64,000 nt of DNA from an uncultured Clostridia bacterium (lineage in GTDB: Bacteria > Bacillota > Clostridia > Oscillospirales > CAG-272): NCBI GenBank assembly GCA_944393415.1, contig CALYAD010000012.1, positions 1 to 64,000 on the forward strand, read 5' to 3'. Both the position numbers and the translations under genes were made by a program. Positions 898 to 61,903 of this stretch are shown here, one piece after another (position 1 is the stretch's first letter; the number at the start of each line of letters is the position of its first letter). The notes below the pieces were generated by a model. That model saw nothing but the letters and a program-made list of their open reading frames with translations, made no database searches and was not told the DNA's origin.

Positions 898-1320
898 CTA
901 AGTTGCCGAAAATCTTTCATAAGTTCCCGCGTTACAAACTTTGTATTCTTGTTCAGAATTTACTATTTCATCTACAGTTTGACTAGGACTGACAACCTCG
1001 TGAATATGAATAATATTCCCGGGACAAATAACTATTGCGTCAGGACGCCATGTTCCAACCAAACCTGCAGTACTTAATTGTTTGTTCTGATATGTATCCG
1101 TAGCTTCAGGATAACTTGCAATAAAGCTATCTATTGCTTGTTGGTGTTCTGAGGTCCCATGGCACCCGTTAGCCATTAATGGCATAATTTCTTCATAACT
1201 GCTATCAGAAGAAATATCCGTCTCAAGTGCGCTGACAGGAATGCATATGGCACTGACAAGTGTCATTAATACTAAGAATAATGACAAAAGTTTAGTTTTC
1301 ATAGTGTTTTTCATTTTCAA
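898..1320 (-). CDS. Secreted EEIMP-leader protein 1, toxin-like C-terminus
   Basis: This 140-aa protein has a good SD (AAAGGAGG) 8 nt before ATG. Its N-terminus (MKMKNTMKTKLLSLFLVLMT, then CIPVSA) is a Sec signal peptide, followed by an acidic stretch and YEEIMPLMANGC. The same leader plus EEIMP plan recurs at 5954-6307, 7023-7406, 8321-8637 and 9401-9799 with unrelated C-termini. Here the C-terminus contains WRPDAIVICPGNIIHIHEVV followed by SPSQT. That (R)PD-x(n)-(H)EV-x-SPSQ pattern resembles restriction-endonuclease-like toxin domains, but the family is not proven. It is the last leader gene of the array and the only one in the 0-3 kb block. Secretion is well supported; a toxin role is inference. 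Confidence 0.75.
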   Translation of the reverse strand: MKMKNTMKTKLLSLFLVLMTLVSAICIPVSALETDISSDSSYEEIMPLMANGCHGTSEHQQAIDSFIASYPEATDTYQNKQLSTAGLVGTWRPDAIVICPGNIIHIHEVVSPSQTVDEIVNSEQEYKVCNAGTYERFSAT

Positions 1321-2759: not shown

Positions 2760-2952
2760 TTTAATCTCCTATGTCGCCTCAGGTGACAAAAAACGTTTTA
2801 ATCAGTTTTTAATAGACGTGAAAAATTTTCGTGTTTTGCAAAGCAAAACAAAAAGCGTCCAGCTTTTTAGAAAATTTATGCGTGAAACCAGCCGCATTCC
2901 GATGCGATGTAATATATTTTTCACGCTAATCTCCTATGTCGCCTCAGGCGAC
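2760..2952 (-). repeat. Structured 5'-leader repeat, copy E1, with hairpin-SD ends
   Basis: Read on the minus strand, this element begins AGCGTGAAA and returns TTTCACGC (outer stem). It continues through AAATTTTCTAAAAAGC and GCTTTTTG segments and GCAAAACACGAAAATTTTTCA, and ends in the hairpin GTCACCTGAGGCGAC followed by ATAGGAGATTAAA and the ATG at 2759. The same hairpin plus SD (GTCGCCTGAGGCGAC, 2938-2952) also lies just before its 5' end, as if a tail of another copy abuts it. Homologous copies lie at 12808-12951, 16937-17079 and 59634-59782. Confidence 0.75.
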
Positions 2953-2959
2953 TCAAACG

Positions 2960-4011
2960 CTATGATTTTAACAGTAATTTTTCAGCTCTGCTTTCACACG
3001 CAAACCAATCACGAAAATCCATATCGTAATACAGAGTGCATTTTTCCTGTGGATTTACTATTTCCTTCATAAATCCTGTATCCTCCGGGCGTATCATATT
3101 TTTAAAATTCTCAAAACCGACAATTTCATTAAGCCTCGGAAAAATAACGAAAGAGTTTTCAAAAGTATAATAGCATGGCTTTTCAAGACCAAGCTCTTTT
3201 ATCTTGAGGCTCAGCTTTTCAAAAAATCTGAAGACGCGAATTTGCGCAGAAATACGTTGATATCGCTGAATTTATACAGCATCAGATCCCTTTGAGTTTT
3301 GACCCAATTATATGTAGTGGCTTCCTTATACAAATGACAGCATAAATGAATAAGAAATTCAGTACTGTCTAACGTATAAAAATATGCATCTCCCACCGGA
3401 ATTTTTATTGAATGGTTAAGGAGTTCAGATACTATGCCACTATCCTCCGACGGTTTATAATCAACCGAAAAATTAATGTCCACTTCAAGCATATTCCCGG
3501 AAATGAGCTTTATAAACGGTATAGTTTCTCCATAATTCATTCTTGAATTGATAATCTCCTTACGTGAAGCCGGAATAATAACGTTATTTATTAAGTCGTA
3601 TTTTCCCTGAACAAATCCGTTGTTTTTAAGGAGCTCCTGAAGCTCAGTTATATCATCTTTATTTATAAGTATATCTATATCATTTGACGTCCTGTGTCCT
3701 TTCTTATACAGCTGAGTTGTCAGAAAAGCCCCTTTAAGCAGAGCATATTTGAATTTGCATCCGGAAAGCAACCGAGACAGATAAACAAGATTAGCGCAAA
3801 AAATTTCAGTATCTTGAATATTTTTTTCGTATAGTGAAATAAAGGCTTTTCTTAGCTCTTTATTATTAAAAGTATCTATAATTTTATCGTATGCGATACC
3901 GACTATCTTATTTTTGATTATTCCGCAAAAAAGTTTATCCAAATCCATTTCATAATCAGCGAGGTTGATTTTTTCATCTGACATTTCATCCGAAAGTTTA
4001 TATAATAGCAT
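2960..4011 (-). pseudogene. Nucleotidyltransferase-family protein (PF14907-like), frameshifted
   Basis: The N-terminal 266 or so residues carry the family signature KYALLKGAFLTTQLYKKGHR then TSNDIDILI, with G-A-F and DID as the likely nucleotide/metal site. The frame stops at 3211. One more base in the homopolymer at 3217-3222 (A6 on the plus strand) would restore the frame to FFEKLSLKIKELGLEKP and onward to a stop at 2960, giving about 350 aa, the family's usual size. I chose ATG 4011 because GGAG lies 6 nt before it; ATG 4023 is also in frame. A hairpin (4027-4039) sits just before the SD. It lies downstream of a thymidylate-kinase-like gene. Substrate unknown. Confidence 0.7.
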
Positions 4012-4885: not shown

Positions 4886-5683
4886 TCAGTCATCCGCTCC
4901 GTCTTTTTTATTTATACATAAAGTCCCGTTTTCTATCATATGAAATATCCTCTTTTCAACTAATCCGAGATTGATATAAACCGGCATTCTTTTCATTACC
5001 TCTCCGATCGCACGCTTTAAAGTGAAATTTTGTGTGGGCAAAATGTTCAAAATAAGCTTATCGTAATAATCCGGCGTAACAGATCTGATCGTTCCGTCGG
5101 AATAAACACGAAGTAGTGAATTTTCTTTTTTAAGACTACGCCATAAATCGCTGTTCCTTTGTTTTTCCATCTTTGTGATTTCTTTCGCTTCCGATAAATA
5201 TGTATAATATTCCCCGGGTTTGAGTATTCCCCAATGCGAATACCCAAACGATGACGTAATGTCCCGTTTTTCCTTCGGAAAATCAACAATTGAAATATCA
5301 CATTCTATATCTCTCAGCATATCGCATAGTAAGTAAACACCGCAAATAGAAAATGCCATCTCACAATTCCAGATACGTATGCTTTTCCCGGATAGTGCTG
5401 CGGCAATTATTCTTTCTGCCTCATTCCTGTATACTGAAAATCTCTCATCGATATTCCATAACTGACCTATATCCCGGTTACCGCAAATCAAATCGCTCAA
5501 ACTTTTTTTCCGTACATCTCCATACAGATCACAATTCAAGCTACCTAAATCAAGCAAATACCCTAAACAAAGAATATCATCAGAAATAGATTCCTTATTT
5601 TTATTATTCTTATTTACCCCACAAGTAACAATCTCATCCCTGAGTGAATTTCTGGTAATTTCATCAAAAACAATTTCAACCAT
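4886..5683 (-). CDS. DUF1835/DUF3658-domain protein
   Basis: This 265-aa cytoplasmic protein of unknown function resembles the DUF1835 family in its first half (VEIVFDEITRNSLRDEI, then IRIWNCEMAFSICGVYLLCD). Its second half resembles the linked DUF3658 domain (WRSLKKENSLLRVYSDGTIR, TPDYYDKLIL, LVEKRIFHMIENGTL). The canonical N-terminal DS-AGSLK-like turn is degenerate (DEITRNSLRDE). ATG 5683 fits the family start and has AAGG 6 nt upstream; an in-frame start at 5746 would add 21 residues with no family counterpart. It stands between the leader gene at 5954-6307 and the kinase-like gene, so it could act as a partner protein, but nothing in the sequence proves this. Confidence 0.65.
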   Translation of the reverse strand: MVEIVFDEITRNSLRDEIVTCGVNKNNKNKESISDDILCLGYLLDLGSLNCDLYGDVRKKSLSDLICGNRDIGQLWNIDERFSVYRNEAERIIAAALSGKSIRIWNCEMAFSICGVYLLCDMLRDIECDISIVDFPKEKRDITSSFGYSHWGILKPGEYYTYLSEAKEITKMEKQRNSDLWRSLKKENSLLRVYSDGTIRSVTPDYYDKLILNILPTQNFTLKRAIGEVMKRMPVYINLGLVEKRIFHMIENGTLCINKKDGADD

Positions 5684-5953
5684 AAATACCTTACTCTCGC
5701 TTAATTTTTTTGTAAAGGTGACAAAACGTATTTCCGTAATCAGCAAAAACTTTAATGGAGCAACCTAAATAATGGAAGTTTTAACGTAAAATACTTGCTC
5801 TTCTTCCTCGTTTCAAATAACTACGAATTACCAAAAATCATACCTTGTAACCTGCAGCAACCTCTTTTCATCACAGACGTTGCTTTCCGAACACGACGAT
5901 ATTACTTTGATATAGGATAGATCCGGCAATAGCCAAAATTTTTTGAATTTACA

Positions 5954-6422: not shown

Positions 6423-6947
6423 CTAATTTTTATAAATGTTAATTTGTAAAAAGCGCTTCCATTCTCCAAACTTTGCTATTTCTTCCTGAATAATTTTGCC
6501 TACACCGCTATAAACGCAGGTATGTACTGCTCGGTTTTTGTAATAATCTATTATATATCCAACGTTAAAGCATAAATATGTTACAAACTCTTCTTTTAAT
6601 ATTTCACCAAAAAACTCCTCAATTTTTGCTATCTGCGTTTTGCTTATATTTACGCTATTATTACTGTGATTTGTATTATTTATATAGATTGGTTCAAATA
6701 ATTTATCACAATTGCTGTAAAAAGCTGACTCTGATAAATTAAAAAGTAAACCATTTCCGTTTGCAACGCCATTTATTTTAAACTCATCTTTATAAAATTC
6801 TGTATCCCACGGTGCAAGATTTGCTCCCAATAAAAGTCCTATACGTCTTTTTGTCGCTTCCTCCATTAAAGAAAAAGAAAAATCATTTAAATATTTTTCC
6901 TCTATTGATGATTTAAAATATATTACTCCATTTGCAGTTAGACTCAT
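6423..6947 (-). CDS. Immunity-like hypothetical protein, paralogous to 11362-11883
   Basis: This 174-aa cytoplasmic protein lies directly downstream of the leader gene at 7023-7406. ATG 6947 has GAAGGAG 9 nt upstream, so I prefer it to the ATG nine codons earlier. It shares a plan with the protein at 11362-11883: a start with G-x-I-x-F, then ATKRRIGLLLGANL (there AIDNRIGINLYCNL), and later AKIEEFFGEILKEEFVTYLC (there TRLQHFYEEILGHEYISNVT). I see no named family. Position after a secreted variable protein and the paralogue in the orphan block suggest an immunity protein; this is inference. Confidence 0.6.
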   Translation of the reverse strand: MSLTANGVIYFKSSIEEKYLNDFSFSLMEEATKRRIGLLLGANLAPWDTEFYKDEFKINGVANGNGLLFNLSESAFYSNCDKLFEPIYINNTNHSNNSVNISKTQIAKIEEFFGEILKEEFVTYLCFNVGYIIDYYKNRAVHTCVYSGVGKIIQEEIAKFGEWKRFLQINIYKN

Positions 6948-7022
6948 AATTAACGCTCCTTCTTTTATAAACACAATTTATATATTCAACAACCAAACAT
7001 ATCCATGACATTCGAAGAATTA

Positions 7023-7620: not shown

Positions 7621-8292
7621 CTAAAACAACGAGACATTTAAATTTTCAAGTTTTCCTGAAAGACTTACAAATATCGGTCGCTTACCAAGAAGCATTTCTG
7701 ATTGCCGTTTTAGTATATCAATTAAATCACTTGTGCTTACATCATCTCCTGATATAAAACAAGATTTAATAGATTCCCATAAACCGCCAAAACGATTCAA
7801 TACTGCGAAAATATTCATTTCTAAAGTCCTTATAACAGTTCCATTTTTGTTTTTTGACAAATCTATGTTCATCTGACTGAGAAACTCTAAGTCACCTTTA
7901 CTTATGTTTGACAAAATATCGGTACAAAGTTTATCTTCCGATATCTCAATACATTCGTAATTTTTAATAAAGTCTTCAACTATCTCGATAAGTCTAAAAT
8001 CTTTTTCTTCCAAAACGATGTCAGGCATCTTAAATAAATAAGTAACCCTGATATTTCGTTTGTTTTCCAAGATTTCAAGTATCTCCATAAGCTGGTCATC
8101 ACTATACGATAACTCCGGTATTTCCGCCAAAACTCGCACAATATCATCTAAAACAAGAAAATCATATGAACAGTAATCAGTATAAACCATAACCTTAGGT
8201 TTTATTTCATTTGCTTTCAGCTTTAATTCATTCCGGCTGATGTCACCTTTCAAATACTGATTAATAATTTTAATTATAGCTTTGGGATTCAT
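7621..8292 (-). CDS. Immunity-like hypothetical protein (223 aa)
   Basis: This soluble protein lies 28 bp downstream of the decayed leader gene at 8321-8637. It starts MNPKAIIKIINQYLKGDISR, an amphipathic helical opening with a G-(D/E)-I-S turn of the kind seen in several small bacteriocin-immunity folds. The rest is helical and acidic (LMEILEILENKRNIRVTYLF, DILSNISKGDLEFLSQMNID). No signal peptide, membrane segment or catalytic motif is seen. Its pairing with a secreted variable protein is the only functional hint. A 215-bp AT-rich gap separates it from the next leader gene. Confidence 0.55.
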   Translation of the reverse strand: MNPKAIIKIINQYLKGDISRNELKLKANEIKPKVMVYTDYCSYDFLVLDDIVRVLAEIPELSYSDDQLMEILEILENKRNIRVTYLFKMPDIVLEEKDFRLIEIVEDFIKNYECIEISEDKLCTDILSNISKGDLEFLSQMNIDLSKNKNGTVIRTLEMNIFAVLNRFGGLWESIKSCFISGDDVSTSDLIDILKRQSEMLLGKRPIFVSLSGKLENLNVSLF

Positions 8293-8320: not shown

Positions 8321-8637
8321 TTACAAATGATAAAAATACACTTCAGGATATGAATTGTTATACCAATAATGACACTCATATATATCATAAGCTCCGACTC
8401 CATAAGTCTCCATTCTATAACGCCAAGTGCCATTTACATACCCTAAATTATATACATAATTAGCAAATGCATCACTTTTATTTGGTCCTTCCTCTGACCT
8501 AATTAGATTTGCTCCTTCAGGGACATATGGTTTACCGCTTACATAACACGAATATGCCGCCATCGGCATTATTTCCTCAAAGCCGACATTCTCAGAAGTA
8601 TCCGGTTCAGCTGCGTTTATCAGTTTAAAAGCGCGGC
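8321..8637 (-). pseudogene. Decayed EEIMP-leader gene 4 (leader truncated and frameshifted)
   Basis: From about 8626 one frame reads LINAAEPDTSENVGFEEIMP then MAAYSC and an own C-terminus (YNLGYVNGTWRYRMETYG ... YECHYWYNNSYPEVYFYHL), ending at 8321. The upstream hydrophobic half of the signal peptide is missing. Aligned with the intact leaders, the DNA matches up to CCGCGCT but lacks one base in the TTT-ATA region, so the frame runs back into a stop with no start codon. The first in-frame ATG is inside EEIMP, which would give an unexported 82-aa fragment. The leftover leader DNA supplies the stop codon of the upstream gene 8620-8994. Confidence 0.65.
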
Positions 8638-8994
8638 GACATTTTCCTTTCTATCGAAATATTTTGTATACACTAAGCCTATTTGTTCTTTTGCAAGTTT
8701 TTGTAAAGTAGGTAAATTTATTTGTATTCCACCCGTCGTGCTGGAATGTTGTACAATTACTATATCAATCTCTTTTTTTGTAATAACCTTTATTTCTTTA
8801 TTATTGGTATATGAATTTACTATTTTATTAATTATTACTTCAAGATCACTTTGACTTGAGTAGTTATAACAAAATAATTTACATATGCATTGATTCCCCA
8901 CTATCTTAATATTCTTCGTATATTCCTTAATCATATTATTTTTATAAAAATCAAATGGAATTCTTAGTTCCAGATATATTTGTAAATCAAACAT
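8620..8994 (-). CDS. DUF4279-like immunity candidate, second of a tandem pair
   Basis: This 124-aa soluble protein overlaps the upstream gene (its ATG lies in TAATG) and has a GGGGG SD inside that gene, so the two are probably translated together. Near its end it has IDIVIVQHSSTTGGIQINLP then TLQKLAKEQIGLVYTKYFD, the same strand-helix pattern as the end of its neighbour. That pattern resembles DUF4279 proteins. Its last residues (NVAALLN) are encoded by leftover signal-peptide DNA of the decayed gene 8321-8637, so the original C-terminus was probably replaced by recombination. The immunity role is inferred from position. Confidence 0.55.
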   Translation of the reverse strand: MFDLQIYLELRIPFDFYKNNMIKEYTKNIKIVGNQCICKLFCYNYSSQSDLEVIINKIVNSYTNNKEIKVITKKEIDIVIVQHSSTTGGIQINLPTLQKLAKEQIGLVYTKYFDRKENVAALLN

Positions 8995-9323
8995 TAATCT
9001 ACCCCCAAGCTGATCCCAAAATCTGATAACTCATTAATTATATATGGTGGGAAATATATTGTCCCATCACCATTAGAAAGCATGTAAGTAATATATAGCT
9101 CAATTTTTCCTCCTGACATATTAATTAAATCAAACAACGATTTATTATTCTTAACAATTTTCAATACATCCATTATACATTTAATAACTGATTTTCCATC
9201 ATTATATGAAGCTATACTATTTGTATAAAAATTCTCAACTTTACCTTCTTTGAATATTACGCTATTACGAAGTGTTTCTTTTATACTATCATCAATGTTA
9301 AAAATTCTTATTGTAGCAACCAT
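8994..9323 (-). CDS. DUF4279-like immunity candidate, first of a tandem pair
   Basis: This 109-aa protein has GGAGAG 7-8 nt before ATG 9323; an in-frame TTG at 9338 would overlap the SD and is less likely. The C-terminus GTIYFPPYIINELSDFGISL then GVD resembles the end of DUF4279 proteins (I-S-x-x-x-L-x-x-L-x-x-L-G-L-S-L-D). It directly follows the silenced leader gene 9401-9799 and overlaps the second DUF4279-like gene, so it is probably the immunity protein for that leader gene. No signal peptide or membrane segment. The family is tentative. Confidence 0.55.
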   Translation of the reverse strand: MVATIRIFNIDDSIKETLRNSVIFKEGKVENFYTNSIASYNDGKSVIKCIMDVLKIVKNNKSLFDLINMSGGKIELYITYMLSNGDGTIYFPPYIINELSDFGISLGVD

Positions 9324-9400
9324 TATATTTCTCTCCAATTTCTTAATGATAGTATTAACTTGAATATATTATAATATATTCAAGTTAATACTTCAATGCA

Positions 9401-9799
9401 CTACCCTGTTATCAAATTACCTAAGTATTCCCCATATTGATTATATACACCTCCTGTAAAATCAAATATGCAGTTATAATTCGCAGGTAAACCATAGCTA
9501 TATTTTATATTATGAAGTCTTTCTGAGGCATTGTCTTTTGATATACCATGGTATTTATATAGATGATTAGAAATATAATCAAAATCATCTGACCATCTAC
9601 CTCCATTAAGAAAATCATCTGGCAAATTATAATTATTTCCACAACAATTATTCGCCGCCATCGGCATTATTTCTTCGCTGCCGAAATTTGTATCCGTCTC
9701 AGAAATATTTACCGCGCCTACAGGTATAAACAGCGCGCTGAGCAGCGTTATCAGTACCAATAATAGTGATGTAAGTTTTGTTTTATTTGTCCCGATTAT
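9401..9799 (-). pseudogene. EEIMP-leader gene 5, start codon mutated to ATA
   Basis: The frame reads TKLTSLLLVLITLLSALFIP then VGAV, an acidic linker, and GSEEIMPMAANNCC. The C-terminus has ASERLHNIKYSYGLPANYNC then IFDFTGGVYNQYGEYLGNLI. R-L-H-x-I-K...(I/V)FD-x-TG-x-VY...GE-x-(I/L)G-x-L is a pattern I recall from Rhs-type C-terminal toxins. The gene aligns base by base with the intact leader at 7406, but the ATG is ATA (9797-9799) and GGAGAT has become AGAGAT, so normal initiation should fail. The only alternative start is TTG at 9758-9760, which would cost the positively charged N-terminus and has no SD. 66 bp of leader (9719-9784) are identical to 10494-10559. Confidence 0.7.
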
Positions 9800-9824: not shown

Positions 9825-10415
9825 TTATTCTTTCATAAATCCCTCCAAGTCGGATATTACACTTTCACATAGATAAAATCCTTGTTCATAATCATATTCT
9901 CTTATTAAACTTCTCCTTTTTGATGCTATTTTGCATACGATTGCAGATATATTAAAATCATAACTAATATCGCAAATTACATCATCCTTTACATTAATTA
10001 CCCGTCCTTCTTTAACCACACGTTTAAAACCCAAACTCTCTAATTTATCTATCAGGCAGTTATTTTTATAAAATTCAATAATATACATTTGAAATATGCT
10101 GTAAAAGTCGTATTCAGAATAATTATACTTTGAAATATAATCAAAACCAAGTTTTTCTACTTCCTCAGGCTGAAGCATTGATACAGGAATTGCCACTCCC
10201 TCAGTATCCTCATAAACTCCGAGTAATGCTTCATTATAACTAAGGGCACATTCGATTTGTATACCATTATCCCAACGGCATAATCGTAAATAATGCGGTG
10301 ATTTAAATAAGTCTTTACCTATTATATAGTTCTTATACCCATTTATAATTACGCATTTCATACCGTGCATAATCATTAACTTCTCAATTTTTTCTATTAT
10401 TAAATCTGTGTTCAT
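9825..10415 (-). CDS. Hypothetical protein, immunity candidate (196 aa)
   Basis: This soluble acidic protein has AGGAGATT before its ATG and no signal or membrane segment. It begins MNTDLIIEKIEKLMIMHGMK and continues with alternating strands and helices (YLRLCRWDNGIQIECALSYN, ISAIVCKIASKRRSLIREYD). I do not recognise the family. It lies between the leader-only remnant at 10452-10565 and the silenced leader gene at 9401-9799, exactly where a partner gene would be if the toxin part of 10452-10565 had been deleted. Confidence 0.55.
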   Translation of the reverse strand: MNTDLIIEKIEKLMIMHGMKCVIINGYKNYIIGKDLFKSPHYLRLCRWDNGIQIECALSYNEALLGVYEDTEGVAIPVSMLQPEEVEKLGFDYISKYNYSEYDFYSIFQMYIIEFYKNNCLIDKLESLGFKRVVKEGRVINVKDDVICDISYDFNISAIVCKIASKRRSLIREYDYEQGFYLCESVISDLEGFMKE

Positions 10416-10451
10416 ATTTACAATCTCCTATTGCTTAATATCTTGTACCGT

Positions 10452-10565
10452 CTAATTTAAACAGGTGTGTTGTATATGTACCCGATGATTGTTTACAGGT
10501 ATAAACAGCGCGCTGAGCAGCGTTATCAGTACCAATAATAGTGATGTAAGTTTTGTTTTTTTCAT
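10452..10565 (-). pseudogene. Leader-only EEIMP remnant (gene 6)
   Basis: A strong SD (AGGAGAG) and ATG precede MKKTKLTSLLLVLITLLSAL then FIPV, identical to the leader of gene 5. The frame then passes into an unrelated 13-residue tail (NNHRVHIQHTCLN) and stops, 37 aa in all. The EEIMP motif and the whole effector domain are missing. The 66 bp at 10494-10559 are identical to 9719-9784. It could be the scar of a cassette deletion or a spare leader available for recombination. A functional 37-aa peptide cannot be excluded. Confidence 0.65.
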
Positions 10566-11361: not shown

Positions 11362-11883
11362 TTATTTTACAATTTTCAGCCGCACATCAGGAAATTCATC
11401 GTAATCTCTATCAAGCGGCGTATTTTCAATTTCAGTGCATAACCGGCTTGCTTTGATTTCCTTATTATACACATCTGTTTTTAATCTCAAGTCGGTATCA
11501 CTGCTATGCTTGTCATAAAACCGCACTGTTACGTTTGAAATATATTCATGCCCAAGGATTTCCTCATAAAAATGCTGAAGGCGTGTTACACCTGACTTTG
11601 CTGCATTGGCAATTCTTCTCCTCCCATACGATATGTTCTTAAACAAATGAGAACATTCGTTTGTTAGGGGATCGTCAAGTATTTCGTAAGGAATAAAACC
11701 TTCCTTTATATAATTTTTTATCGGGAAAAAATACTCTCCCTCGCTTGTTAGATTACAGTATAAATTTATTCCGATACGGTTGTCTATTGCCTTCTGCGTC
11801 AAATAATAGGAGATTTCTACTACATCATCTCTCTCAAGCTTTTCGGAAAATACTATTTTACCTACTATATTACAATATGGCAT
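11362..11883 (-). CDS. Orphan immunity-like protein, paralogue of 6423-6947
   Basis: This 173-aa soluble protein has AAAGGAG 9 nt before the ATG. It shares with 6423-6947 an opening strand with G-x-I-x-F, the RIGI-(N/L)-L-x-x-NL block (AIDNRIGINLYCNLTSEGEY) and a late FYEEILGHEYISNVTVRFYD block. Two members of one soluble family within 5 kb, one directly after a secreted variable protein and one with no leader gene beside it, is the usual look of cognate plus orphan immunity genes. This is an interpretation from context and by-eye alignment. Confidence 0.6.
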   Translation of the reverse strand: MPYCNIVGKIVFSEKLERDDVVEISYYLTQKAIDNRIGINLYCNLTSEGEYFFPIKNYIKEGFIPYEILDDPLTNECSHLFKNISYGRRRIANAAKSGVTRLQHFYEEILGHEYISNVTVRFYDKHSSDTDLRLKTDVYNKEIKASRLCTEIENTPLDRDYDEFPDVRLKIVK

Positions 11884-12045
11884 GCTTATCTTCTCCTTTG
11901 AGCTTAAATAATTTTTTATTCATTCAGATGCTTCAGGTGCTCAATTAATTTTAATGTTATCTCCCCATTACTTGGTTGGAATATCTATTTTGAAAGCTCA
12001 CATGTACCCTTTTTTATCAGTTACACAGAAGCTGATTTTTTGGAC

Positions 12046-12768: not shown

Positions 12769-12807
12769 ATTAATGATATGAGGGCTATTTTGTAAATATT
12801 TATAATA

Positions 12808-12951
12808 ATCCCCCATGCTGCCCAAGGCAGCACAAATAGGCATGAAAAATTTTCGGGCTTCGCTTTGCGAAGCAAAAAGCGTTTAGCTTTTTAGAAAATT
12901 TGGGCGTGAAACTATCTGCATTTTGTTGCGATCAGATTGATCTTTCACGCT
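12808..12951 (-). repeat. Structured leader repeat, copy E2 (no gene attached)
   Basis: On the minus strand it reads AGCGTGAAAG ... TTTCACGC, CAAATTTTCTAAAAAGC, GCTTTTTGCTTCG, CAAAGCGAAG, CCCGAAAATTTTTCATGCC, then hairpin GCTGCCTTGGGCAGC (12817-12831) and ATGGGGGATTATT. It is nearly identical to copy E3 at 59634-59782 over its whole length. Unlike the other copies no start codon follows the SD-like GGGGG, so it is an orphan copy. Confidence 0.75.
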
Positions 12952-13104
12952 AACTCTCTAGATATGATTGCACCGGATAAAGCTGAACGCAGCGGCGAGT
13001 ATATATAAATATACGAGCTTGTTTTACTGCCTCCCCTAAAACGGATGCCTGAAATAATACCAACTCTATACAAAAAAGTACCATGGAATTTTGTACATAA
13101 ACTG

Positions 13105-16736: not shown

Positions 16737-16936
16737 GTTATAAAACGATCAAACAGTACTTTTCTGCGCGAAATCCAGCAGCTTGGCAGAAAAGCCTTGG
16801 CCCCGCACATCTCAAGGAATTTATTACAAGAACATTATGTTATCCATTCGCATAATATATCTTTAGAAATGTGCGGAAATATAAATTTACAGCAGGAAAG
16901 TAAACTTCCGCGTAACACGGAAGCGTTAAGGATTTT

Positions 16937-17079
16937 AGCGTGAAGGAAGATTACATCACGTCAAAATACAGATGACTTCACGCTTAAATTCTCTCAAAAG
17001 CCGATCGCTTTTGTATATGCAAAACACGAATATTTGTCATATTTATTTGAGCCGCCTTCGGGCGGCATGGAGGATTATC
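16937..17079 (+). repeat. Structured leader repeat, copy E4, 5' UTR of the SOD-like gene
   Basis: AGCGTGAAG ... CTTCACGCTTAAATTCTCT, CAAAAGCCGATCGCTTTTG, ATGCAAAACACGAATATTTG follow the same order as copies E1-E3. It ends in hairpin GCCGCC-TTCG-GGCGGC (17051-17066), then AT, SD GGAGG (17069-17073), ATTATC and the ATG at 17080. It is more diverged in sequence than E2/E3 but the stems are kept, including CATC/GATG inside the first stem. This copy is on the opposite strand to the others. Confidence 0.7.
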
Positions 17080-17616
17080 ATGCAAAACAACCCAAACTTT
17101 ATATCTTCACTACCGCCCCTGATCTCGGTTTTGCGCGGCAGACCTCAGGCATACGCTTACATAGAGGGAGATACCGTAAATTATCCTGAGCTTCTCGGGG
17201 CAGCGCGCTTTTATCAAACAAGATCGGGTGTGATCGTTTTTACAGAAGTAAGAGGTCTGCCAATTGCCGAAACCGACTGTAACGCTCCTGTATTTGGATT
17301 TCATATACATGAGGGTACCTCCTGCGGCGGAAGTATGAACGATCCGTTTTCGGCGTCAATGTCACATTATAACCCCAATAATTGCCCTCATCCTTATCAT
17401 TCCGGAGACCTTCCGCCGTTATTCGGCAACAACGGTTTCGCGGTAAGCCTGGTACTTACAGACCGCTTTAATGTTGATGAAATCATAGGAAAAACAATAA
17501 TTATTCATGACCGACCGGACGACTTCAGCACACAGCCGTCCGGAAACTCAGGTACAAAGATTGCCTGCGGAATCATAAAAGCCAACTACAGGCTACCGCG
17601 TTCCTATCAGCGTTAA
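17080..17616 (+). CDS. Cu/Zn superoxide dismutase-family protein
   Basis: This 178-aa protein keeps the complete metal ligand set: GFHIHEG (two Cu histidines), SMSHYNPN (bridging His), CPHPYHSGDLPP (Zn His, His and Asp), and TIIIHDRPDD (Cu His). The active-site Arg before the ACG motif is Lys here (GNSGTKIACGII). A Cys pair that could form the usual disulfide is present (SCGG and IACG). No signal peptide, so it would act in the cytosol, unlike typical secreted SodC. It would convert superoxide to oxygen and peroxide if active; the Arg to Lys change may lower the rate. ATG 17080 is chosen for its GGAGG SD; the longer in-frame ORF upstream covers the repeat. Its stop overlaps the convergent DUF1848 gene by 4 bp. 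Confidence 0.8.
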   Translation: MQNNPNFISSLPPLISVLRGRPQAYAYIEGDTVNYPELLGAARFYQTRSGVIVFTEVRGLPIAETDCNAPVFGFHIHEGTSCGGSMNDPFSASMSHYNPNNCPHPYHSGDLPPLFGNNGFAVSLVLTDRFNVDEIIGKTIIIHDRPDDFSTQPSGNSGTKIACGIIKANYRLPRSYQR

Positions 17617-50662: not shown

Positions 50663-50707
50663 AAAATCAAAAAGGGCGCACCTATTCCGTTATAAAATAA
50701 GTGGCCC
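50663..50707 (-). terminator. Expression-platform terminator of the ZTP riboswitch
   Basis: On the minus strand GGGC-CACTTATT pairs with AATAGGTG-C-GCCC (one bulge, one G-T pair) and is followed by TTTTTGATTTT. The 5' arm is the conserved CUGGGCC end of the riboswitch, so ligand binding and termination exclude each other. Confidence 0.75.
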
Positions 50708-50795
50708 AGACGGTCGGCGTTCGGAGCATATGCTCAGGCAGTATAATCTCTGCTCCCCCGTGGTAGACCCACTTATCCGTCAGTTGCAGAAACCT
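50701..50795 (-). ncRNA. ZTP (pfl) riboswitch controlling the purine operon
   Basis: On the minus strand the conserved parts of the ZTP/pfl motif appear in order: CAACTGACGGATAA, the hairpin GTGGG-TCTA-CCAC, GGGGGAGC, and after a variable stem (GAGCATATGCTC) the 3' half CCGACCGTCTGGGCC. Compare the well-studied pattern ACUGGCG ... GGUGGGAAACCACC-GGGGAGC ... CCGCCUGGGC. Riboswitches of this class sense ZMP/ZTP, which build up when 10-formyl-tetrahydrofolate is short, and turn on purine and folate genes. The location before purE and the overlapping terminator fit. Confidence 0.9.
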
Positions 50796-50825
50796 TGTAT
50801 ATTACATTTGATTTATAATACTATT

Positions 50826-58640: not shown

Positions 58641-59633
58641 TTAGTTTTTCTTTTCCATTTCTCCGAGCGCGCGCAGTATCTGACCCCGATATCCCTGTAC
58701 AACTTCCTCCGGTGAGAGGATTTCAAGCGCCCCGTCAAAACCAAAGACCCATCCGTAAAAGCGTACGCTTACCTCGACACGAGCGTAAAACTCAAAATAA
58801 CCGTCGTATTCCTTGATCACAAGCTCCTTACCGAATCGGTCAAACATAGCTCCGGCAAGTCGGTTTTCACATCTGAAGCGTACATTATACTCCTCGCCTC
58901 TGAACATTTCAAAAACGGTACTGCAGTAGCTTGCCAAAGAAACCTTTGAAAATTCCTCCTTTCCCAGCCTCGGGTCTCCGGTACGTCTTATGTTTTCCAT
59001 ACGATCCACACGGTAATGCCGTATGCTCTGCGTAGCGTGATCATAAGCGACAAGATAATAATTTTCCTCTCTCCATATAAGCGCCCACGGGCTCACGGTA
59101 TAAATAGCTCCGCCGTGCTTGGGCACAATCTGCTTTGACGGGGTCGTTTCGGTGTATCTGAAGGTCACGGAGGTGTTTTCGGATATCGCACCGTGAAGAG
59201 CGTCAGTTAGATAAAGCACATTGCTGGATCTCTCATCGGGTCGGTCGTATACATAAACGCTCCTTGAAAGCTGTTTTTCGCCGTAAACGCTGGTAAGCGA
59301 CGAAAGCTTTTTTATAAGGGATTTGCACTGTTTGTTTGATATAAATCGCGACGACTGTACCGCGTCCACCAATATTTTCAGCTCAGCCAGCTCAAAATCC
59401 CGGCTGAGTACGCGAAAACCCCCGTTCCGTCCTTCGGTATTCCCTATATCGAGCAAACCCGAATCCTTCAGCGCTTCTATATCTCTGTAAATACTTTTTC
59501 TTTCCGCTTCGATGCCGTAGGCTCCGAGCTTTTCCTCAAGCTGCCCCGCGCTCAGCGAATGCTCCTCATCTGTTTCTCTTAAAAGTATATCTTTCAGGCG
59601 TAATATTTTTAGCTTTTGATTTTCCCGTTTCAT
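58641..59633 (-). CDS. WYL-domain transcriptional regulator
   Basis: This 330-aa protein has an N-terminal DeoR-type helix-turn-helix (LSAGQLEEKLGAYGIEAERK, SIYRDIEALKDSGLL) followed by a WYL domain (VSPWALIWREENYYLVAYDH ... RHYRVDRMENI). WYL domains sense nucleotides or single-stranded nucleic acid. Targets unknown. Its SD (GGGGGATT) and leader come from repeat copy E3 directly upstream, so its expression should depend on that element. Confidence 0.85.
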   Translation of the reverse strand: MKRENQKLKILRLKDILLRETDEEHSLSAGQLEEKLGAYGIEAERKSIYRDIEALKDSGLLDIGNTEGRNGGFRVLSRDFELAELKILVDAVQSSRFISNKQCKSLIKKLSSLTSVYGEKQLSRSVYVYDRPDERSSNVLYLTDALHGAISENTSVTFRYTETTPSKQIVPKHGGAIYTVSPWALIWREENYYLVAYDHATQSIRHYRVDRMENIRRTGDPRLGKEEFSKVSLASYCSTVFEMFRGEEYNVRFRCENRLAGAMFDRFGKELVIKEYDGYFEFYARVEVSVRFYGWVFGFDGALEILSPEEVVQGYRGQILRALGEMEKKN

Positions 59634-59782
59634 AATAATCCCCCATGCTGCCCAAGGCAGCGCAAAACAGGCATGAAAAATTTTCGGGCTTCGCTTTGCG
59701 AAGCAAAAAGCGTTTAGCTTTTTAGAAAATTTGGGCGTGAAACTATCTGCATTTTGTTGCGATCAGATTGATCTTTCACGCT
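59634..59782 (-). repeat. Structured leader repeat, copy E3, 5' UTR of the WYL regulator
   Basis: On the minus strand AGCGTGAAAG ... TTTCACGCCCAAATTTTCT, AAAAAGCTAAACGCTTTTTG, CTTCGCAAAGCGAAG, CCCGAAAATTTTTCATGCC, then hairpin GCTGCCTTGGGCAGC (59647-59661), ATGGGGGATTATT and ATG 59633. It is nearly identical to E2, 47 kb away, which points to recent duplication or strong conservation. Confidence 0.8.
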
Positions 59783-59895
59783 ATTCTCCATGCTGCCATT
59801 GGCGCCTAAAAACCGTTTTAATCGGTTTTTATAGATACGAAAAATTTCGTGTTTTGCTGTGCAAAAAAATTTATGCTTGAAATGGTTTTTACGCT
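59783..59895 (-). repeat. Degenerate structured repeat, copy E5, in tandem with E3
   Basis: On the minus strand it reads AGCGTAAAAACC, GCATAAATTTTTTTGCACAG, CAAAACACGAAATTTTTCG, AAAAACCGATTAAAACGGTT and an imperfect hairpin (about 59792-59806), then ATGGAGAATAGCGTGAAAG leading into E3. Its first stem is eroded. The tandem order mirrors the extra hairpin-SD before E1. 59896-60063 holds no supported gene. Confidence 0.55.
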
Positions 59896-61514: not shown

Positions 61515-61530
61515 CGCTTGTCGCTATCTC

Positions 61531-61903
61531 GGATGAGCGGACTTATAAGCCGGGTTCTGTAACGGTCAAAAAACCGTCCGCAATTATCTATCTTGACGTC
61601 ATGTCGCCATAACGTTCTTTGCCACCTGCGAAATTCCGTCGGGCAAACGTGGTTTCTATCCCCTTTCGCTTACGGTGTTGCTTCGGATAGGGTTTACAGC
61701 ATACCCCGGTTACCCGGGATACGGGTGAGCTCTTACCTCGCCTTTCCATCCTTACCCGCGTAAGCGGGCGGTATATCTCTGTTGCACTTTCCCGGAGGTC
61801 GCCCTCGGCTGACGTTATCAGTTATCCTGCCCTGTGAAGCCCGGACTTTCCTCATGATAATACCTTTCGGCTTGATATCACGCAATTGCGCCGTCCGCTC
61901 ACC
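61531..61903 (-). ncRNA. rnpB: RNase P RNA (class A)
   Basis: On the minus strand the ends pair (GGTGAGCGGACGG with CCGCTCATCC), and the conserved blocks appear in order: GAGGAAAGTCCGGGC near the 5' side, CAGGGCAGGATAACTG, and near the 3' side AACCCGGCTTATAAGTCCGC, all standard for bacterial RNase P RNA. It is the catalytic part of the enzyme that trims tRNA 5' ends. Length about 370 nt. A consensus promoter (61912-61940) and a terminator bracket it. Confidence 0.95.

What the first reader, a model, noticed from the sequence alone, without database searches (positions are those of the whole stretch)
8600..8660. Leader DNA of a broken cassette now encodes the end of the neighbouring immunity-like protein
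Seen: the last residues and stop of the 8620-8994 gene (VAALLN-stop) lie on DNA that aligns, with one base missing, to the signal-peptide region of intact leaders. The downstream effector frame (LINAAEPD..EEIMP) has no start left. This is a direct picture of a cassette fusion junction near 8622-8640.
Basis: seen in the sequence. Interest (0 to 1): 0.55.

Follow-up and report, generated by a model that had tools for sequence, protein, structure and literature searches.

The report
Toxin cassette cut off its start
In an uncultured gut-type bacterium, a break-and-join in the DNA fused a probable immunity gene to the middle of the next gene's secretion signal, leaving a small toxin-like gene without its start, in an array of such gene pairs that looks reshuffled and shared between species.

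Summary
The last residues and stop of the 8620-8994(-) gene lie on DNA that aligns, with a one-base gap, to intact leaders; the anchored match to leader B was reached by 0 of 5000 non-leader positions. The join is at about 8641-8647. The effector frame behind it (8324-8623) has lost start and signal peptide but is open for 100 codons. Six leader copies are found in this genome, all in this window: A, B and F have their start; C lost its 5' part, D has ATA where relatives have ATG, E has lost the effector body. In a contig of the same genus (CALWJW010000019.1) cassettes D and C, about 2.3 kb, are absent, and D-like sequence gives way to B-like sequence within the leader's first ~40 nt. The shared block is 95% identical (900 nt without a difference), although the his genes tested match at 70% in short patches only. 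Best reading: a displaced, silenced orphan toxin-immunity cassette in an array whose leaders act as recombination seams: a new variant of a known kind. No homologue of 8620-8994 was found, so its original C-terminus stays unknown. Toxicity and immunity are inferred.

The parts
8620..8994 (-). immunity-like gene D2 (124 aa); its last codons and stop lie on leader DNA; its ATG overlaps the stop of the gene before it
   Evidence: no family above a curated cut-off
8622..8641 (-). leader-derived DNA now coding VAALLN-stop; junction just upstream, about 8641-8647
   Evidence: alignment and null
8546..8641 (-). leader C, 5' part (about 58 nt of leader plus any spacer) missing
   Evidence: 58 of 66 nt shared with leader A, 53 of 66 with B, against 53 of 66 between A and B
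8321..8623 (-). effector C frame, 100 codons open, no usual start or signal peptide; internal ATGs at 8569 and 8563
   Evidence: 5 of 10000 mononucleotide shuffles stay open
7621..8292 (-). immunity-like gene of cassette C (223 aa); paralogue at C48 of the same genome
   Evidence: 58% over 224 aa, dN/dS 0.32; 9 of 385 family genomes match, own included
9401..9799 (-). cassette D: leader with ATA (9799-9797) where relatives have ATG, then effector D
   Evidence: in-frame TTG at 9760
8994..9323 (-). immunity-like gene D1; distant DUF4279 resemblance, below cut-off; paralogue at C60 of the same genome
   Evidence: 90.8% aa over 109, dN/dS 0.16
10435..10565 (-). cassette E remnant: leader joined out of frame to the last codons of a lost effector
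   Evidence: leader tract 68 of 69 nt identical to leader D
9825..10415 (-). immunity-like gene left behind in cassette E; paralogue at C60
   Evidence: 57.9% aa over 190; its 3' end is the start of contig L010
7023..7406 (-). cassette B effector with complete leader; weak Ntox24 resemblance
   Evidence: Pfam E 0.0049, 17.6 bits, cut-off 24
6423..6974 (-). immunity-like gene of cassette B
   Evidence: 95% aa identical in L010
5954..6307 (-). cassette A effector with complete leader; identical in L010
4886..5746 (-). gene after effector A, DUF1835/DUF3658 protein
   Evidence: Pfam E 1.8e-20 and 1.5e-5, both above cut-off
898..1320 (-). cassette F effector with complete leader, apart from the others

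Best explanation
The junction is a one-sided, non-homologous join in an array of leader-effector-immunity cassettes. On its left is the second immunity-like gene of cassette D, on its right the 3' part of the leader of cassette C. Shown: the join, the leader homology, the loss of C's start and signal peptide, and that the immunity frame simply runs into leader DNA and stops there. Inferred: the effectors are small secreted toxins, the genes after them give immunity, and cassette C is an orphan whose toxin is silent while its immunity gene is kept. The most likely route is the one proposed for Vibrio immunity arrays: an incoming module pairs by its leader with a resident leader, and its far end is joined illegitimately, here inside the displaced resident leader. 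A plain deletion between the D immunity gene and leader C would leave the same join and is not excluded.
For: Anchored match 0 of 5000. Leader C is no more diverged from leader A (58/66) than A is from B (53/66) and its effector frame is open, so the break is recent or the frame is kept. Damage recurs: D has no ATG, E has lost its effector body while the immunity-like gene stays. Leaders are seams: L010 lacks D and C and changes from D-like to B-like within the leader's first ~40 nt, with 11 of 11 informative sites B-like after that; D and E share a 69-nt leader tract with one difference. The block moves: 95% over 2812 nt with 900 nt identical against 70% in two short patches of the his genes. 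A seven-gene cluster at C60 holds paralogues of array genes (at least 3 of 7) and no leader. Model text: PMC5361080 section 13.
Against: No homologue gives the original end of 8620-8994. The direction of change between the two genomes is not known: L010 may have lost D and C, or the window gained them. Informative sites within the first ~36 nt of the L010 leader are mixed, D-like and B-like. dN/dS of the two immunity-like genes shared with L010 is 0.64, weak constraint. No effector has a toxin family above cut-off. Both genomes are metagenome assemblies and the L010 contig begins inside the array.
Confidence: 0.66

Rival explanations
1. Plain deletion in a tandem array: immunity D2, spacer and a complete leader C once stood in line; one deletion took D2's stop, the spacer and the leader's 5' part. 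No incoming module is needed.
For: Complete junctions elsewhere in the array have short spacers (115, 214, 25 and 21 nt), so a deletion of modest size suffices. Cassette E is clearly an internal deletion. A 10-nt exact match between the D2 end and a leader sits at the join (10 or more in 89 of 4000 controls), as slipped mispairing could leave.
Against: The 10-nt match depends on the stretch chosen: without the aligned part it is 9 nt, reached by 610 of 4000. It does not explain why leader D is a near copy of leader E.
Confidence: 0.24
2. Functional fusion: effector C is still made, from the internal ATG at 8569 or 8563 behind GAGGAAATA, as a protein without signal peptide, coupled to the immunity gene.
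For: Frame open for 100 codons (5 of 10000 shuffles); Shine-Dalgarno-like GAGGA 4 to 10 nt before the ATGs (read).
Against: The same GAGGAAATAATG codes the conserved EEIMP in other cassettes, so it needs no start function. No expression data.
Confidence: 0.07
3. Assembly or sequencing artefact in a metagenome-assembled genome.
For: Repeated leaders are where short-read assemblies fail; L010 and the window both lie at contig ends.
Against: The join is leader against unrelated gene, with point differences on both sides; damage of other kinds is seen in D and E.
Confidence: 0.03

Closest known systems
Orphan rhs-CT/rhsI modules of Salmonella (Koskiniemi 2014, PMC3967940; abstract and passages seen)
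   Same: Displaced toxin fragment that keeps part of the conserved upstream coding sequence, lacks translation start and export signal, and has its immunity gene behind it.
   Different: There the conserved part is a long Rhs core (522 bp at 95%); here it is a signal-peptide leader of under 150 nt. Rearming by recombination was shown there, not here.
Vibrio cholerae T6SS effector-immunity arrays (Kirchberger 2017, PMC5361080; abstract and section 13 seen)
   Same: New module displaces old effector, old immunity genes stay in a row; anchor homology plus one illegitimate end.
   Different: T6SS effectors with VgrG or other carriers; here small proteins with their own signal peptide, and the old leader, not the effector, is cut.
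Tandem T7SS immunity genes esaG/tipC of firmicutes (Garrett 2022, PMC9484751; abstract and passages seen)
   Same: Gain and loss of array members by recombination between shared sequence blocks.
   Different: There the blocks lie in the immunity genes; here in the leaders of the effectors.
Sec-dependent polymorphic toxins incl. MafB-MafI of Neisseria (PMC3482391 passages; PMC4287609 abstract)
   Same: Signal peptide, shared N-terminal part, variable C-terminal part, immunity gene next door.
   Different: Mature parts here are only about 70-95 residues after EEIMP; MafB has a large N-terminal domain (recalled).
Orphan immunity clusters (rAID) of gut Bacteroidales (PMC12247911 abstract)
   Same: Immunity genes kept without effectors, as at C60.
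   Different: rAID is recombinase-associated; no recombinase was looked for at C60.

Membership tests
Polymorphic toxin-immunity system | Shared N-terminal part with variable C-terminal part | tested here: met
   Leaders align, mature parts differ; EEIMP then five residues then Cys in 5 of 5 window effectors
Polymorphic toxin-immunity system | C-terminal domain is a known toxin | tested here: inconclusive
   Only effector B resembles Ntox24, E 0.0049 and below cut-off; the other four give no hit at E up to 1
Polymorphic toxin-immunity system | Adjacent gene gives immunity | not testable with these tools
   Position only; needs an assay
Displaced orphan toxin module (rhs-like) | Lacks translation start and export signal, keeps part of the conserved upstream sequence and its immunity gene | tested here: met
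   immunity-like gene 7621-8292 intact
Displaced orphan toxin module (rhs-like) | Can recombine into an expressed gene | not testable with these tools
   L010 shows a leader-borne rearrangement, not rearming of C
Rhs element | Rhs core before the toxin part | tested here: not met
   No Rhs match in the ten array proteins scanned; an Rhs core protein lies about 8 kb away on the L010 contig
DUF4279 (for 8620-8994) | Profile match | tested here: not met
   No hit at E up to 1; no relation to the 8994-9323 pair by hhalign

The most novel reading that the evidence does not exclude
The leaders are not only signal peptides but the seams of a switchable store of weapons: silenced cassettes such as C keep the 3' part of a leader so that a crossover with an upstream leader can put their toxin back under a secretion signal while deleting what lies between, as the D-to-B change in L010 suggests; the array is exchanged between species of the genus.
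Probability: 0.2. Interest if true: 0.66.

Novelty: new variant of a known kind. Interest (0 to 1): 0.42.

Why it matters
Orphan immunity and toxin modules are known mainly from T6SS, Rhs and T7SS systems. Here the same life cycle (gain, displacement, silencing, immunity kept) can be read at base level for very small signal-peptide proteins in uncultured Clostridia. If leaders are the recombination seams, arrays in other strains should differ by whole cassettes with joins inside leaders, which is directly testable in metagenomes.

Tried and rejected
Chance resemblance of the tail to a leader: rejected for leaders B and L010, less clearly for A. Homologues of 8620-8994: five weak hits were re-examined; three gave no convincing match, one is 41 aa within an unrelated frame, one runs through stops; the hit lies in a frame that reads like a DNA-binding regulator (recalled). 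A truncated copy of the D2 gene behind the C60 paralogue of D1 was considered (alignment); the similarity covers about 50 nt and is too weak to use. Structure of 8620-8994: mean pLDDT 47.7, last strand 108-113, tail unstructured in the model; no fold search was run because the model is poor. Relation of 8620-8994 to DUF4279 by topology: hhalign gave nothing (one search likewise for the neighbour pair against the L010 DUF4279 protein). Effector C relatives: 4 of 385 family genomes, the leader part in two of them, one remnant with three stops in G358 (34% over 62 aa) and one weak hit in G017 inside a large unrelated frame. Relatives of 7621-8292: G013 has a lone gene without a leader gene seen next to it. 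Large proteins sharing the signal peptide (18 loci) do not show the EEIMP part in the stretches printed. A palindrome in leaders A and B as a site-specific recombination point: seen by eye, absent from leader F and broken in D, not tested further. Shuffle test was run in the wrong frame and replaced. PADLOC and NCBIfam gave no match near a useful score. Print: searches listed no paper on this leader family; most subscription papers are not held.

Full report
What is there. On the minus strand the array reads, from high to low coordinates: leader remnant E and the immunity-like gene 9825-10415; cassette D (9401-9799) with two immunity-like genes, 8994-9323 and 8620-8994; leader remnant C, effector C and gene 7621-8292; cassette B with gene 6423-6974; cassette A with gene 4886-5746; and, apart, cassette F. 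A search of the window's own genome with leader A found six leader copies, all in this window.

The join. The 8620-8994 frame ends on leader DNA. Aligned from the conserved GATAAAC leftwards, the stretch matches leader B and the L010 leader with one gap; 0 of 5000 random non-leader positions score as high, 24 of 5000 for leader A (a flawed first null is). Upstream of about 8641-8647 the similarity ends. About 58 nt of leader are missing. The effector frame behind it is open over 100 codons (5 of 10000 shuffles). The remaining leader is as close to leader A (58 of 66 nt) as any pair of different leaders in the window compared there (A and B 53 of 66), so there is no sign of long decay.

More damage of the same sort. 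Leader D has ATA where the aligned copies have ATG, with the rest of its frame open; translation might still begin at an in-frame TTG (9760). Leader E runs out of frame into the last codons of an effector whose body is gone, while the gene behind it is intact. Leaders D and E share 68 of 69 nt, with unlike sequence on either side.

A second genome. Contig C19 of G004, which is CALWJW010000019.1, an uncultured Clostridia MAG, starts in the 3' end of the gene corresponding to 9825-10415 and continues directly into a leader and effector B, then genes 6423-6974, A and 4886-5746. Cassettes D and C are absent. In a three-way comparison the spacer is D-like, sites in the first ~36 nt of the leader are mixed, and 11 of 11 later informative sites are B-like. 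The block of 2812 nt is 95.2% identical with nine consecutive 100-nt blocks, 6508-5609, without a difference, while effector B's first half differs by 6 to 16 per 100. The his region of the window finds in G004 only 185 and 163 nt at 70% of 2913. The array has therefore probably moved between these species, unless the contig was put in the wrong bin.

Immunity genes elsewhere. The same genome holds at C60 a row of seven open frames, of which C60_4694, C60_6057 and C60_8316 are paralogues of 9825-10415 (57.9% over 190 aa), 8994-9323 (90.8% over 109) and 11362-11883 (23.7% over 131); a fourth match is 23 residues only. At C48 lies a paralogue of 7621-8292 (58.5% over 224). No leader was found at either place. 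dN/dS is 0.16, 0.13 (dS saturated) and 0.32 for the three closest paralogue pairs, but 0.64 for the two immunity-like genes shared with L010 and 0.87 for effector B: constraint is clear for the older pairs only.

How it most likely works. Inferred: each cassette makes a small secreted antibacterial protein and protects its maker by the gene behind it. The support is indirect: leader plus variable part, neighbour genes with paralogues in a leaderless cluster, a weak Ntox24 match of effector B, and an Rhs core protein on the L010 contig. Cassette C would then be an orphan: toxin silent, immunity kept. The join has homology on one side only, as expected of homology-facilitated illegitimate recombination, the model given for Vibrio arrays (PMC5361080, section 13); the state of cassette C is that of orphan rhs modules, which lack start and export signal (PMC3967940). 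A plain deletion gives the same join and I put it at 0.24.

What speaks against it. There is no homologue of 8620-8994 to show the old C-terminus; function is untested; the direction of change is open; both genomes are metagenome assemblies; the 10-nt match at the join is weak evidence (89 of 4000, or 610 of 4000 for the narrower stretch).

Novelty. The parts of this life cycle are known from T6SS, Rhs and T7SS. What differs is scale and seam: mature parts of about 70 to 95 residues, and leaders of under 150 nt as the shared sequence. I found no paper on this leader family in six library searches. New variant of a known kind.

Noticed in passing
window 9351-9392: Perfect 42-nt inverted repeat without a spacer (two 21-nt arms) between effector D and gene 8994-9323; absent in the alignment with the C60 paralogue as far as it reaches.
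   Followed up: no
window 2811-2957, 12799-12958, 16929-17081, 59629-59811; start of contig C48: Dispersed repeat of about 150 nt, 97% between 12799-12952 and 59629-59783, which happens to stand on both sides of the array.
   Followed up: partly
window effectors A, B, C, D, F and L010:125-508: EEIMP is followed by five residues and then Cys in all five window effectors and in the L010 one; perhaps a processing site before a conserved first cysteine.
   Followed up: no
L010:9450-10874 and 11760-12000: Rhs core protein with a following small gene, and a second Rhs core, on the same contig as the array in the sister genome.
   Followed up: no
window 61530-61901 and 50697-50797: RNase P RNA class A and a ZMP/ZTP riboswitch, both minus strand.
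   Followed up: no
L053 about 3085-3261 (G358): Effector C-like remnant with three stops (34% over 62 aa) beside other unidentified genes.
   Followed up: no
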